Position numbers and translations under genes: made by a program
Notes under the pieces: model-generated
The model's database searches: none
What the model was told of the DNA's origin: nothing
Seen by the model: only the letters and a program-made list of their open reading frames with translations
Part shown: positions 35,991-41,186 of the stretch, piece after piece
How the letters are laid out: each line of letters starts with the position of its first letter
Numbering within the stretch: the stretch's first letter is position 1
DNA from: Bolinopsis microptera
Lineage: Eukaryota; Ctenophora; Tentaculata; Lobata; Bolinopsidae
Assembly: GCF_026151205.1 (NCBI RefSeq)
Contig: NC_087082.1
Span: 10,116,901-10,176,900 of the forward strand
Direction of reading: 5' to 3'
Length of the DNA: 60,000 nt

Positions 35991-36066
35991 TTAATTACCA
36001 CATGTATCACAGTACTCCCATCGAGGCACAGTTCCCTCTCCATTATAACACCAGGGGCCTGAGCCA
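35991..36066 (-). CDS. Gene 4 exon 6: kringle end and stop
   Basis: Acceptor TTCCTCAG, then GSGPWCYNGEG and RWEYCDTCGN, then TAA. It supplies the last three kringle cysteines. Confidence 0.85.
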
Positions 36067-39000
36067 CTGAGGAAAATTATGACATATGTTACAATGGAAT
36101 ATTTCAGAAAAGAAATTTCATAAATCAATTATATTTCCAAATCCATCTTCATTGCAGTTTTTTGTAGATTTATTTTATAAATGTTTGTGCCCATACCTTG
36201 TGCTCGACTTGATGACAATAATTATGGAACAATACCAGATATTGAAAACTTACCCGTCTGGATTTCTGCAATAGTTCTCTTGCAGTCCTAATCTAGTGTA
36301 TCTGAAAATGTTTTTATGATGAGGTCTTTTCCTAAAATAGTCAATGATGTGCATTTTCAATGTATATATTATAATCATATAGATTAAAAGTGTTATGGGG
36401 GTAAACAGAGTGATAAGTAACAATATACCATCTGCAAAGTTACCATGATGGTCTCAAACATAAAAAAGAATAAATCCAAATAAGAAGCAACAAAAAGACT
36501 TTTGAATAACTTTAGAAGTGTAGAACAGCTTAAAAAGCAACGAAAAAATTTACTCCTGCTTGGATCCAAAATTCTGTGTGTTAGGTGATTGAGAGTCCCA
36601 TCTCTGGCATTTGCGTCCTGATTTTGTGACAGCTACCTTTCCCCTGTACTCTGATCCATCATTTTCAATACTTATACAATCTGGAGCGGGAGTTAATCCA
36701 TTGGTTATTCTTTTTAGAAAACATTGTTATAGCAAAAACAAGAACAGTTTCTCGCTTACAATAGTGAGGTATATTGGGGTTTGCAGTAAATTGGGGCGTA
36801 TTAAATCGGGTATCTGTGAATCAGGCGCGGTAAAGGCGACCTAGAGAGTAGTGATCAGTGGACAGTGTTAATAACGCAGTATAACTATAAGTATAACTGT
36901 TTGAGAAACTATATGATTTTTCAGTGGTTGAATCTGCTTTATCAACACAATCGTCTCCCGTTGGAGTTTCTTCAGATAACCTTGTGACGCTTTGAGGCAC
37001 TGAGGCACCGAAGGCACGACTTTGAGGCCCTTTAAAAACCAGTTTTGAGGCGCTGAGGCACCTGAGGCAACAATTTGCAACACTTGATGCATTGTACAGG
37101 GTTAGAAACATAACATGATGATTTCGTGACTAACTAGACCACTCAGTTAGATAACAGTTTTTATAAATAATTGTGGCAGTTCATTGTCGTCATAAAACTA
37201 ATATTTTGTCCAAAACTGTTGTTTTGCTCAACCTGCGTCACTCGATAAACTTATTCAACTATTGAGATCAAAAGTTACACTCTTATTCACTCGACAATCA
37301 CTTGACTTATACTTTAACACGTTCTCTAGGTGTTTCTTAGTGACTATTTAAAATATTCAAAACTTTATCAGCTTATCCCTCTAATCTGACTCAGCCCTAA
37401 CCCTAGCCATTAAGCAAAATACTTCATCTTACTGTATATCTGCTTTAACGAAACTAGAGTTATAGGAGTATATCTGAGGACAAGACATTGCGGAGATGAT
37501 AACTACCAACAACGGTCACCTTCAAGTATGAAGCTGTTTTAGTTAACTGTTCTTAGATTTAAAAAATTGTAAATAAAGAAAGTTGAAGTAAGTCGAGATT
37601 AGTTTATAATAAATCTTCAGCCGTATTAAACAAGCGTGCCTCCCATTTTAAAGCAGTGAGATATAAAAAGACTTGAATCTTTTTTATAAACTGAACTTGG
37701 TCTGATCAATGATTTTGTTAACTCACTTTTAGGGTCCGGAGCTTCCGTAGGCTCCGTTTTCCACCAAGGCTTTTCTGAAAATACATTCGTTACCTTTATG
37801 AAGGAGCACTAGCAACTGTTGCTCTGTAGAGCACATCTTTTAACAATACTTTCATTGCCTTATCGACTTTCCGAGAAAGCAACAGGTTTCAGTTTCCCAA
37901 ACAAAAGGAAATGATATCAATTGGAATAAATCGTTTTCAAATACAAAATGATACCGATAATGAATCGGTCGCTCGCTTTTCCCATTTATTCACGGCTTAC
38001 GAATTTTAATCAGTTTAATTTTAGGTTTATTACATCGATGACACTCTCTGGATTCTGGAAACCCCTTAGGCCTAGGGTTGCTTTCAAGCCAATACTTAGT
38101 ACTAATTGGGATAAATTAGACGTTAATAACTAGTTAGTGTCCAATTAGCAGAGGTTTATCGAATCTTTATTTCCGAGTACTGCTTCTGGGTACCGTAGTG
38201 CTGCTTGATTTATCGCAATTGTAAATGAAAGGTATGTCCGGTCTTGGTGAGGAGGTTGCGGAGAGTAGTTGCTGATGAGTGGGTGACTTTGATGTCGTGT
38301 TGTCCGAGTATCTTGCAAATGGGTTTGGAGAGAGAGGGATGGAATGGAAGGGAAACGCTGAGTGCGTGATCTTTAGTCTATCGGTTGAATGAGGCTAAGA
38401 ATTGGTGTCGAGGAGGGTTGGTGGATTTGCGGTGAACCTCGTACATGATGGTGGTGATGCGGAGGGGAGGGAAGCCGTCCTGAAGGCAAACGTGTCTGAC
38501 AGTCTGTAGTTCGTCTTCGAGGTGTTGAGGTGAACAGATGTTGTAGGCTCTTCTGGTGATGGATTGGATGACGGCGTTCTTGGAGGAGTTGGTAGTGCAG
38601 GAGGTAGTTGGTACTGGTAGTGCAGGAGGAGTTGGAGGAGTTGGTAGTGCAGGAGGAATACTTGGTGTAGAGGTTGTTGTGGGTGGGTTTTCTGTAGACT
38701 GAAGTGGACTCAGGACTTGTCAGGGTGAATTTGAGGTCTTCGGTGAGGGAGTTGAGGAAGGTGGGGAAGGATTCTGTGTTCTGTATGTCTATGAAAGATC
38801 CGAGGCTGTCGTAAACAAAGTGGGGGTAGGTATGAGGGGGGTCAGGCCATGGGTAGAGGGCTAGAGATTCTATTTCGTGGAGGTTTTTAAGAAATTTGAG
38901 CAAAATACGCGCCAGCACTGTTAATGTTATACGAATTTCATTTTTGGTAAAAACCCAAAATCGCCATATTCAGGTGCCTTAAAAACCACGTTAAAATTGA

Positions 39001-40854: not shown

Positions 40855-40893
<39 letters not shown>

Positions 40894-41186
40894 ATCCGTA
40901 ACCAGTTTTACACATAGCTATTGTATCAAGATTACACTAGCGTAATCATTTGGAAACCACCTCCCCCTCGGCTGATTACGTAATATGTGAACGACCTCCT
41001 ATTATAAATAGAATTGAGTGGAATAAATTCATACGCTAGCAGCTAGGCTGGCTATACCTGTTGAACGCTGTATTTGCTACAGGCATTTTTAACCCCTGAT
41101 TCCAAATTTAAGTCCATACATTTCCAACAAGTAAGCGATTGAGCTCGTGCCACCATTGCCACTATTATAGCTATTGCTATATTCAT
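35991..41186 (-). CDS. Gene 4: secreted LU-domain / kringle protein, complete
   Basis: Six exons, 41186-41058, 40725-40494, 37774-37727, 36680-36554, 36301-36254 and 36066-35991, all with GT-AG borders. They total exactly 660 bases including the TAA stop: a 219-residue secreted protein. Order: signal peptide (1-17), ten-Cys LU domain (about 18-120), Pro/Glu linker with EKPWWK, then one kringle domain with its six cysteines. Hallmarks seen are SEYRGKVAVTKSG, CQRW, QENYCRNPDG, GPWCY and RWEYC. There is no membrane segment. Kringles bind proteins or lysine-type ligands in other families; the ligand here is unknown. Everything up to the linker is paralogous to genes 1 and 3, but the C-terminal domain is different. 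Confidence 0.82.
36090..36245. other. Short intron between kringle exons
   Basis: Intron of about 187 bases bounded by GTAAGT and CCTCAG on the minus strand; no other content seen. Confidence 0.6.
36254..36301 (-). CDS. Gene 4 exon 5: kringle middle
   Basis: 48 bases between TTTTCAG and GTAAGT, phase 2 in and out, reading YTRLGLQENYCRNPDG. Confidence 0.85.
36554..36680 (-). CDS. Gene 4 exon 4: first half of kringle
   Basis: 127 bases after acceptor CGCTCCAG, phase 1 in and 2 out, donor GTAAAT. It carries the first two kringle cysteines and NDGSEYRG, VTKSGRKCQRW. Confidence 0.85.
37727..37774 (-). CDS. Gene 4 exon 3: linker
   Basis: 48 bases between TTTCAG and GTGAGT reading EKPWWKTEPTEAPDPK, phase 1 in and out. 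Confidence 0.65.
38135..38880 (-). pseudogene. Penelope-like element fragment, copy 2
   Basis: A paralogue of 28340-29200 from the segmental duplication, with STSVYRKPTHNNLYTKYSS and the same CT-rich repeats. It has a deletion of the LDVLI block and is joined directly to R270 at 38877. Confidence 0.75.
38876..39125 (+). repeat. R270 repeat, copy 2
   Basis: Same as copy 1 with a few substitutions; it precedes the second ribozyme locus. Confidence 0.85.
39174..39293 (+). ncRNA. tRNA-like segment plus type I hammerhead ribozyme, copy 2
   Basis: Core CUGAUGA at 39249-39255, stem II GUCCU/AGGAC with a 6-base loop (longer than copy 1), GAAA at 39272-39275, stem III ACA/UGU, GUC cleavage site ending at 39284. 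Stem I CCAUA/UAUGG pairs perfectly. An upstream GAUGAU can extend stem I with AUAUC across a bulge. The B-box-like GGATCGATTCC is at 39200-39210. Confidence 0.88.
39593..39790. mobile_element. Repeat X, partial copy
   Basis: Begins TTTTTTCCCGATCCATGACT and has the GTGCCGAAGGCAC hairpin; the second half is missing. Confidence 0.6.
39970..40049. repeat. Local palindrome
   Basis: ATTTTGAATTGTAGTTGACG...GAGAGTCTCCACTG is followed at once by its inverse, giving a hairpin of about 35 base pairs. Confidence 0.7.
40494..40725 (-). CDS. Gene 4 exon 2: LU body
   Basis: 232 bases, phase 0 in and 1 out. CPVEKDVCASL...ETCNYGLCNG. No stop. Confidence 0.82.
40838..40999. mobile_element. MITE in LU intron 1, copy 3, with 37-base poly-C
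   Basis: The orthologue of 3212-3396. The middle has become an uninterrupted C run (40856-40892). The ends GGGGTCGTTCAC and GTGAACGACC remain. Confidence 0.65.
41058..41186 (-). CDS. Gene 4 exon 1: signal peptide and LU start
   Basis: 43 codons, phase 0 out. The signal peptide [17 protein letters not shown] is identical to gene 1, then LTCWKCMD. Confidence 0.82.

What the first reader, a model, noticed from the sequence alone, without database searches (positions are those of the whole stretch)
35991..41186. Same LU gene front end joined to different C-terminal modules: kringle in one copy, F-type lectin in others
Genes 1, 3 and 4 share promoter flank, signal peptide, two LU exons (129 and 232 bases each), a linker micro-exon and the following intron. 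Gene 4 then continues into a kringle domain and stop codon, while genes 1 and 3 continue into an F-type lectin. All junctions are phase 1, and gene 4 assembles to exactly 660 bases. Exon phases and domain signatures are read directly; that this is a family of modular secreted recognition proteins is inference. I know of no described LU-kringle or LU-F-lectin family but cannot search.
Basis: partly seen in the sequence, partly recalled or inferred. Interest (0 to 1): 0.85.

Follow-up and report, generated by a model that had tools for sequence, protein, structure and literature searches.

The report
Comb-jelly LU genes with swapped tails
In what looks like a comb-jelly genome, one secreted-protein front end (signal peptide plus a Ly6/uPAR-like domain) is joined to a kringle in one gene and to a fucose-lectin domain in others, and the intron where the two gene histories were joined can still be read.

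Summary
Gene 4 splices to exactly 660 nt: signal peptide, LU-like domain, linker, kringle, stop. Genes 1 and 3 share its front and run into F-type lectin exons. Corrections: introns inside domains are phase 0 or 2, only domain borders are phase 1; gene 3's own lectin has a stop, but its front fits in frame onto the intact 'gene 2' lectin. The front has 17 loci in this genome, probably the ctenophore Bolinopsis microptera: 5 with kringle (one with two, one with kringle plus SRCR), 2 with lectin, 10 with no tail found. The lectin genes carry a chimeric intron, left half from LU-kringle genes, right half from an F-lectin gene, joined where a dispersed repeat ends. Mature LU exons differ 3.3 times more than introns and flanks (p = 3e-17) while the few synonymous sites checked change at the intron rate. 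I read this as exon-shuffled secreted recognition proteins under diversifying selection. Exon structure, family, chimeric intron and rate contrast are shown; expression, fold, mechanism of joining and function are inferred.

The parts
41058..41186 (-). Gene 4 exon 1: signal peptide (18 codons, my reading) and first part of the LU-like domain
   Evidence: signal-peptide DNA identical in 6 of 10 copies compared
40494..40725 (-). Gene 4 exon 2: rest of LU-like domain, ends CNYGLCN, phase 1 donor
37727..37774 (-). Gene 4 linker micro-exon (EKPWWKTEPTEAPDPK), phase 1 on both sides
36973..37408 (-). Dispersed repeat sequence in the intron after the linker, with a TGCCTCAA minisatellite; its 3' terminus (36973) is the point where the chimeric lectin genes switch to lectin-gene intron. 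Left limit and unity of the element are uncertain
36554..36680 (-). Gene 4 kringle exon a
36254..36301 (-). Gene 4 kringle exon b
35991..36066 (-). Gene 4 kringle exon c and stop codon
33848..33976 (-). Gene 3 exon 1 (signal peptide and first part of LU)
33253..33484 (-). Gene 3 exon 2 (rest of LU)
27667..27714 (-). Gene 3 linker exon
27056..27057 (-). Gene 3 chimeric intron join
24143..24260 (-). Gene 3 first lectin exon (acceptor 24260 or 24242)
23464..23593 (-). Gene 3 second lectin exon, interrupted by an in-frame stop
19403..19404 (-). Gene 2 chimeric intron join: LU-kringle-type intron ends at 19404, F-lectin-type intron starts at 19403
18986..19112 (-). Gene 2 lectin exon 1 (acceptor 19112 or 19085)
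18142..18271 (-). Gene 2 lectin exon 2 (SCTHT...WW...NRMECCGDR)
17623..17797 (-). Gene 2 lectin exon 3 (ends with LTLCEVETYGVK)
17475..17482 (-). Gene 2 terminal exon with stop
3455..3583 (-). Gene 1 exon 1
2843..3074 (-). Gene 1 exon 2
2529..2552 (-). Gene 1 linker exon
1244..1358 (-). Gene 1 lectin exon 1 (acceptor 1358 or 1340, same frame)
342..528 (-). Probably decayed duplicate lectin exon without GT donor
194..323 (-). Gene 1 lectin exon 2 with the fucose motif; the last lectin exon lies outside the window at C11:10116743-10116569

Best explanation
A lineage-specific family of secreted two- or three-domain proteins built by exon shuffling. A starter cassette (5' flank, signal peptide, two-exon LU-like domain, linker, phase-1 donor) carries exchangeable phase-1 tails. 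The older arrangement in this set is LU-kringle (single-kringle, double-kringle and kringle-SRCR forms on four chromosomes). In the C11 cluster the sequence downstream of one LU-kringle intron was replaced by an F-type lectin unit: the new intron is LU-kringle intron on the left and F-lectin-gene intron on the right, joined where a dispersed repeat ends. Tandem duplication then spread it; some copies lack a front and at least one lectin is broken. The proteins probably act outside the cell: the LU head as a protein-binding domain, the tail as a second binding domain (fucosylated glycans for the lectin form). Mature LU diversifies faster than neutral while signal peptide and flank are kept, as in proteins engaged with variable partners; I take innate recognition of microbes or non-self as the most likely role. 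SHOWN: exon structure, dispersed family, chimeric intron, exon/intron rate contrast. INFERRED: splicing in vivo, secretion, three-finger fold, sugar binding, which tail is older, role, and how the recombination happened.
For: Gene 4 open frame and GT-AG introns; kringle and F-type lectin over cut-off (PDB matches), SRCR over cut-off. 17 distinct LU exon-2 loci (20 pieces): 5 with kringle exons downstream, 2 with lectin exons, 10 with neither in the fetched stretch. LU-kringle-SRCR frame with a phase-1 junction at C1:19.16 Mb. Junction: in genes 0, 2 and 3 LU-kringle intron homology stops and F-lectin intron homology (L045) starts at adjacent bases. That base is also a repeat terminus: of 42 genome matches to the surrounding 211 bp, 21 end there (query 117-120; 18 of them outside this cluster), the 5 LU-kringle copies run past it, 16 end elsewhere; 10 of 10 copies fetched, chosen among those reaching it, end there with differing sequence after. 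Rates: mature LU exons 127/1222 against noncoding 70/2221 over four disjoint pairs, ratio 3.3, p 2.6e-17; four-fold sites of unchanged codons 2/72 in three of those pairs. Codon ML omega 1.87 for LU, p 0.0067 against omega 1 on a kappa grid. Signal peptide: no change in 54 nt among 6 of 10 copies. Fucose motif in gene 1 has the spacing of PDB 1k12, ungapped.
Against: No transcript or protein evidence. LU stays under Pfam's cut-off, four single-exon relatives match no Pfam family at E up to 0.01, and profile searches of the PDB found no LU structure; no fold prediction was possible. Kringle and lectin omega do not differ from 1 (1.04, p 0.72; 1.34, p 0.23). In 11 of 36 pairs the exon/noncoding contrast is not significant and in one of these it is reversed; one of 15 NG86 pairs has Ka/Ks under 1 (0.60, gene 1 and L033). 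Three of 17 LU exon-2 loci are split by a frameshift and gene 3's lectin has a stop, so part of the family is decaying. Function is argued by analogy only.
Confidence: 0.65

Rival explanations
1. Diversifying secreted effectors for prey capture (mucus, adhesive or venom-like proteins) rather than immune recognition.
For: Introns and exon 1 conserved with divergent mature exons is the published pattern of snake three-finger toxin genes, the same domain class (PMC2474615, passages); a similar contrast is measured here.
Against: Kringle, SRCR and F-type lectin tails are, from general knowledge, more usual in recognition and adhesion proteins; the same rate pattern also fits immune or gamete proteins. 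No tissue data.
Confidence: 0.2
2. Gamete-recognition proteins, like oyster bindins (F-type lectins diversified by selection, recombination and splicing).
For: F-type lectin module and fast change; the review describes bindins this way (PMC5712786, passages).
Against: 15 of 17 LU loci carry kringle tails or no tail found.
Confidence: 0.1
3. The exon/intron contrast is not selection: gene conversion homogenises flanks and introns while exons keep older divergence.
For: Pairwise NG86 Ks for LU (up to 0.24) exceeds noncoding distance; noncoding data reject the exact exon tree (AU p 3e-5).
Against: At four-fold sites of unchanged codons differences are 2/72 in three disjoint pairs, about the noncoding level, so the high NG86 Ks probably comes from multiply-hit codons; exon data do not reject the noncoding tree (AU p 0.315), and the two clades with full support on exons are also in the noncoding tree. 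Restricting to unchanged codons biases synonymous counts down and the numbers are small.
Confidence: 0.15
4. Mostly non-functional duplicates: the tails lie near fronts by duplication and are not spliced to them, or the chimeras are pseudogenes.
For: Stop in gene 3's lectin, frameshift splits at 3 of 17 LU loci and fronts without tail found at 10 of 17, orphan kringle whose last exon is split over two frames at C10:6.33 Mb.
Against: Open frames through six exons with matching phases (gene 4) and seven exons (gene 3 front plus gene 2 lectin), plus LU-kringle-SRCR; six kringle cysteines in gene 4 and the gene 1 fucose motif kept.
Confidence: 0.12

Closest known systems
Ly6/uPAR (LU) domain proteins (uPAR, CD59, GPIHBP1, three-finger toxins)
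   Same: Ten cysteines in gene 4, CxxC start, C-x4-CN end, UPAR_LY6 profile aligned over 1-80 of 82 positions; clustered tandem copies; intron inside the LU domain; relatives L048, L049 and L052 end in a hydrophobic C-terminus like a GPI signal (my reading).
   Different: [quoted passage not shown] Here it is joined to kringle, SRCR and F-type lectin. The signal peptide shares an exon with LU and the internal intron is phase 0, unlike the typical three-exon layout given there.
F-type lectins (FBP32, eel agglutinin, oyster bindin)
   Same: PDB matches FBP32 9e-33 and 1k12 7e-17 (listed as LECTIN; that 1k12 is eel agglutinin is recalled), motif spacing as in 1k12, AIDGN at the cation motif.
   Different: Partner domains named in the review passages are CTLD, pentraxin, CCP, EGF-like and others (PMC5712786); the terms 'kringle', 'LU domain' and 'ctenophor' have 0 occurrences in its text.
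Kringle proteins (plasminogen, HGF, prothrombin, ROR)
   Same: Six cysteines, WDSQSP and NYCRNPDG motifs; best PDB match plasminogen.
   Different: No protease or kinase domain in gene 4; the kringle ends the protein after an LU domain.
Accelerated exon evolution in three-finger toxin genes (ASSET)
   Same: Exon 1 and introns conserved, mature exons divergent (PMC2474615, passages including the abstract).
   Different: Here exon data do not reject the noncoding tree, so no clear sign of segment switching within LU; whole tails are switched instead.
Exon shuffling by intronic recombination of phase-1 modules
   Same: Domain-border introns phase 1 in gene 4 and in the C1 LU-kringle-SRCR gene.
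   Different: Both parental intron types are still present and the join can be placed to the base, at a repeat terminus.

Membership tests
LU (Ly6/uPAR) domain | Ten-cysteine pattern with C-terminal CN | tested here: met
   Gene 4 has ten cysteines ending LCN; in the aligned members L034 lacks the final N and L041 lacks two cysteines
LU (Ly6/uPAR) domain | Profile match over curated cut-off | tested here: not met
   UPAR_LY6 in 8 of 10 members but sub-threshold (best E 0.0065, gene 4 15.8 against 24.8 bits); 0 of 10 cysteine-fixed shuffles. Called LU-like, probable member
LU (Ly6/uPAR) domain | Three-finger fold and disulfide pairing | not testable with these tools
   Structure tool busy, then switched off
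LU (Ly6/uPAR) domain | Usual gene layout: signal exon plus two LU exons flanked by phase-1 introns (usual, not defining) | tested here: not met
   Signal peptide and LU start share exon 1; only the 3' side is phase 1
Kringle | Profile over cut-off, six cysteines | tested here: met
   79.2 against 34.3 bits; six cysteines
F-type lectin | Sequence family match over cut-off | tested here: met
   Gene 1 and gene 3/2 product PF22633 66.0 and 69.6 against 27.8 bits; fucolectin structures
F-type lectin | Fucose motif H...RXDX4(R/K) | tested here: met
   Gene 1 intact with spacing as in 1k12 (the review prints X24, I count 26 in gene 1). Gene 2 has E for D
F-type lectin | Fucose binding | not testable with these tools
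   needs glycan array or affinity purification
SRCR | Profile over cut-off | tested here: met
   L042: 35.4 against 26.1 bits; joined to LU-kringle in frame by a phase-1 junction
Exon shuffling by intronic recombination | Chimeric intron with both parental types identified | tested here: met
Exon shuffling by intronic recombination | Chimeric transcript | not testable with these tools
   no RNA data
ASSET-type segment switching | Exon segments replaced by unrelated segments | tested here: inconclusive
   Exon data do not reject the noncoding tree, AU p 0.315, but the noncoding data reject the exact exon tree, AU p 3e-5; segments were not tested one by one

The most novel reading that the evidence does not exclude
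In this ctenophore lineage the LU domain has become a reusable starter module, fused through one phase-1 exit intron to at least four tail types (kringle, double kringle, kringle-SRCR, F-type lectin). [quoted passage not shown]
Probability: 0.35. Interest if true: 0.82.

Novelty: new variant of a known kind. Interest (0 to 1): 0.62.

Why it matters
Exon shuffling is usually inferred from symmetric phases long after the event. Here the product, LU-kringle relatives of one parent and an F-lectin relative of the other coexist in one genome, and the join is readable to the base where a repeat ends. If the LU assignment holds it is a counter-example to the published view that LU is probably not a bona fide mobile module, in a lineage for which my searches listed no LU-kringle or LU-F-lectin protein. 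The exon/intron contrast makes testable whether comb jellies have fast-evolving secreted recognition proteins built from mix-and-match domains.

Tried and rejected
A transposon-borne front with a fixed 5' end at 41582: suggested by BLAST edges, rejected because gene 1 and several other copies share further flank upstream. Helitron origin of the repeat ending at 36973: no fixed base follows the 3' terminus, left open. Element-to-element crossover as the join mechanism: one diagnostic base differs between genes 0/2 and genes 1/3, undecided. Exon swapping between LU paralogues: exon data do not reject the noncoding tree, though the reverse test rejects. NG86 Ks as neutral yardstick: probably inflated by multiply-hit codons. 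Hidden Pfam domains behind fronts without tail: none at E up to 0.01 in about 7 kb at three of ten such loci (L029, L031, L035); the other seven were checked only with kringle and lectin queries. Species by COX1, GFP and let-7: nothing; GFP and let-7 had no ringing control. LU profiles against the PDB gave no LU.
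Full report
WHERE IT IS. The window is G000:C11:10116901-10176900 of a 264.65-Mb assembly. C1 is 26.2 Mb, C11 20.8 Mb, window GC 38.3%. Table 1 of PMC11797021 (passages) gives for the ctenophore Bolinopsis microptera 265 Mb, 13 chromosomes, largest 26.2 Mb, N50 20.8 Mb, GC 38.5%. I infer this species; the scaffold count differs (346 against 232) and no name is attached to the genome.

THE OBSERVATION. 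Gene 4 (minus strand) has six exons with GT-AG introns, 129+232+48+127+48+76 = 660 nt, one open frame and TAA. The product is signal peptide, ten-cysteine LU-like domain, short linker, kringle (Pfam 3e-22; six cysteines). Phases are 0 inside LU, 1 at LU/linker, 1 at linker/kringle, 2 and 2 inside the kringle: domain borders are phase 1, not every junction. Gene 1 shares the front and runs into an F-type lectin (PF22633 4.7e-18; FBP32 9e-33 and 1k12 7e-17 in the PDB). An exon-like copy at 528-342 has no GT at its end and is probably a relic. Gene 3's own lectin has a stop. The 'gene 2' lectin about 8.5 kb after gene 3's linker is complete, no LU exon of its own was found in the window, and joined to gene 3's front it gives 849 nt ending in a stop. 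That joining is a hypothesis.

IS THE FRONT AN LU DOMAIN? UPAR_LY6 is matched by 8 of 10 members scanned as single domains, best E 0.0065, gene 4 over profile positions 1-80 of 82, under the curated cut-off; QVR, a related Pfam family, by 2 of 10. In full-length gene 4 UPAR_LY6 is not reported at E up to 1. None of ten shuffles with cysteines held in place matched it. Relatives L048, L049 and L052 are single-exon genes with a hydrophobic C-terminus like a GPI signal (my reading); they and L046 match no Pfam family at E up to 0.01. Probable, not proven.

A FAMILY, NOT A LOCAL ODDITY. LU exon 2 gives 20 pieces at 17 loci on C1, C2, C8, C9, C10, C11 and C12; two of the 17 (L035, L036) are 99.3% alike over 9.4 kb and might be one locus assembled twice. 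In the fetched stretches 5 of 17 have kringle exons downstream (gene 4; C12:1.85 Mb with a frameshifted LU exon; C2:18.45; C12:1.74 with two kringles; C1:19.16), 2 of 17 lectin exons (genes 1 and 3), and 10 of 17 neither. Domain scans of three of those ten found nothing. At C1:19.16 Mb LU-kringle continues in frame through a phase-1 junction into an SRCR domain and stop. At C11:19.1 Mb two F-lectin units in tandem follow an N-terminal region without Pfam match.

THE JOIN. The intron after the linker runs on to the kringle in gene 4, L033, L034 and L032. In genes 0, 2 and 3 this homology ends, and homology to the intron before the second lectin unit of L045 begins, at adjacent bases...GTCACAAGGTTATCTG | TTTCTTGATTTAACC... 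(one base of slack in gene 0). Gene 1 has the same right side with a decayed left side. So the lectin genes carry an intron made of two gene histories, probably one event followed by tandem duplication. The LU-kringle form occurs on four chromosomes (C1, C2, C11, C12) and the lectin form, as far as found, only in this cluster, so I take kringle as the older tail. The base at the join is also the end of a dispersed repeat: of 42 matches to 211 bp around it, 21 end at query 117-120 (18 outside the cluster), the 5 LU-kringle copies run past, and 16 end elsewhere, mostly at 100-101 inside the minisatellite. All 10 copies fetched, chosen among those that reach the end, stop there (two bases of slack in one) with differing sequence after, though four share a flank. 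The repeat therefore probably took part, but I cannot tell crossover between repeat copies from an end-joining break at its edge.

HOW THE GENES EVOLVE. Between gene 4 and gene 1, flank, introns and signal peptide are 91-100% identical but mature LU is 69% (exon 1 part) and 84% (exon 2). Over 36 pairs of nine fronts, exon distance exceeds noncoding distance in 35, significantly (p under 0.05, uncorrected) in 25. Four tree-disjoint pairs, one of them including the frameshifted copy L035: 127/1222 against 70/2221, ratio 3.3, p 2.6e-17; four-fold sites of unchanged codons in three of them 2/72. Synonymous change is thus about the intron level and amino-acid change several times faster; choosing unchanged codons biases this somewhat and the counts are small. 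NG86 Ka/Ks is above 1 in 14 of 15 pairs and 0.60 in one. Codon ML: LU omega 1.87 (p 0.0067, eight copies, null fitted on a grid of kappa); kringle 1.04 and lectin 1.34, not different from 1. Kringle exons nevertheless diverge more than their introns between gene 4 and L033, L034 or L032 (not against the near-identical L043); the lectin shows this less clearly. The 54-nt signal-peptide sequence is identical in six of ten copies. The two fully supported clades of the exon tree are also in the noncoding tree; the noncoding tree's clade L029-L030-L035 is not recovered by the exons, and noncoding data reject the exact exon tree while exon data do not reject the noncoding tree.

MECHANISM. The best-supported reading is a secreted protein with a protein-binding LU head and an exchangeable second binding domain. 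For gene 1 the fucose motif is intact with 1k12 spacing; gene 2 has E for D. Fast mature change on a constant signal peptide and flank suggests variable partners. Innate recognition is my first choice, prey-capture effectors second, gamete recognition third; none is tested.

WHAT IS KNOWN. [quoted passage not shown] PMC5712786 (passages) lists other partner domains for F-type lectins; 'kringle', 'LU domain' and 'ctenophor' have 0 occurrences in its text. PMC2474615 (passages) describes conserved introns and switching exons in three-finger toxin genes. PMC11797021 (passages) reports unusual SRCR and CTLD combinations in Mnemiopsis; [quoted passage not shown] PMC6337849 (passages) treats LU and kringle as parts of separate proteins of the plasminogen system. 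No LU-kringle or LU-F-lectin protein appeared in the titles and abstract openings (lists capped).

VERDICT. A real and unusual family; new variant of a known kind (exon-shuffled modular secreted proteins), with a readable shuffling junction and strong exon-specific change. Function and expression remain open.

Noticed in passing
window 47505-50900: Tandem array of about eight 405-bp units, over 99.8% identical.
   Followed up: no
window 13749-15654 and 15817-16763: Tandem arrays of a 335-bp unit (about 99.7% identical) and of a more diverged unit of about 60 bp.
   Followed up: no
window 30828-32235: Inverted repeat, 94.5% identical arms meeting head to head, in the intron of gene 3.
   Followed up: no
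window 36972-36920 (and L032, L033, L034, L043): Intron stretch just after the repeat terminus reads like a decayed kringle start (GDDCVDKAD), perhaps a lost first kringle (my reading).
   Followed up: no
L044 (C11:10107001-10117000), between gene 1 and the next lectin unit: Reverse-transcriptase-like stretch of a retroelement (my reading, not searched), and a further F-lectin unit ('gene 0') with all lectin exons for which no front was found.
   Followed up: partly
L045 (C11:19098500-19104000): Two tandem F-type lectin units behind an N-terminal region that no Pfam model matched at E up to 0.01.
   Followed up: partly
L035 and L036 (C8:18.44 Mb and C8:16.51 Mb): 9.4 kb at 99.3% identity 1.9 Mb apart, both with the same frameshifted LU exon: recent duplication or assembly artefact.
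   Followed up: no
genome-wide: At least 150 SRCR and 150 kringle matches, both at the tool's scoring limit, many in tandem clusters.
   Followed up: no
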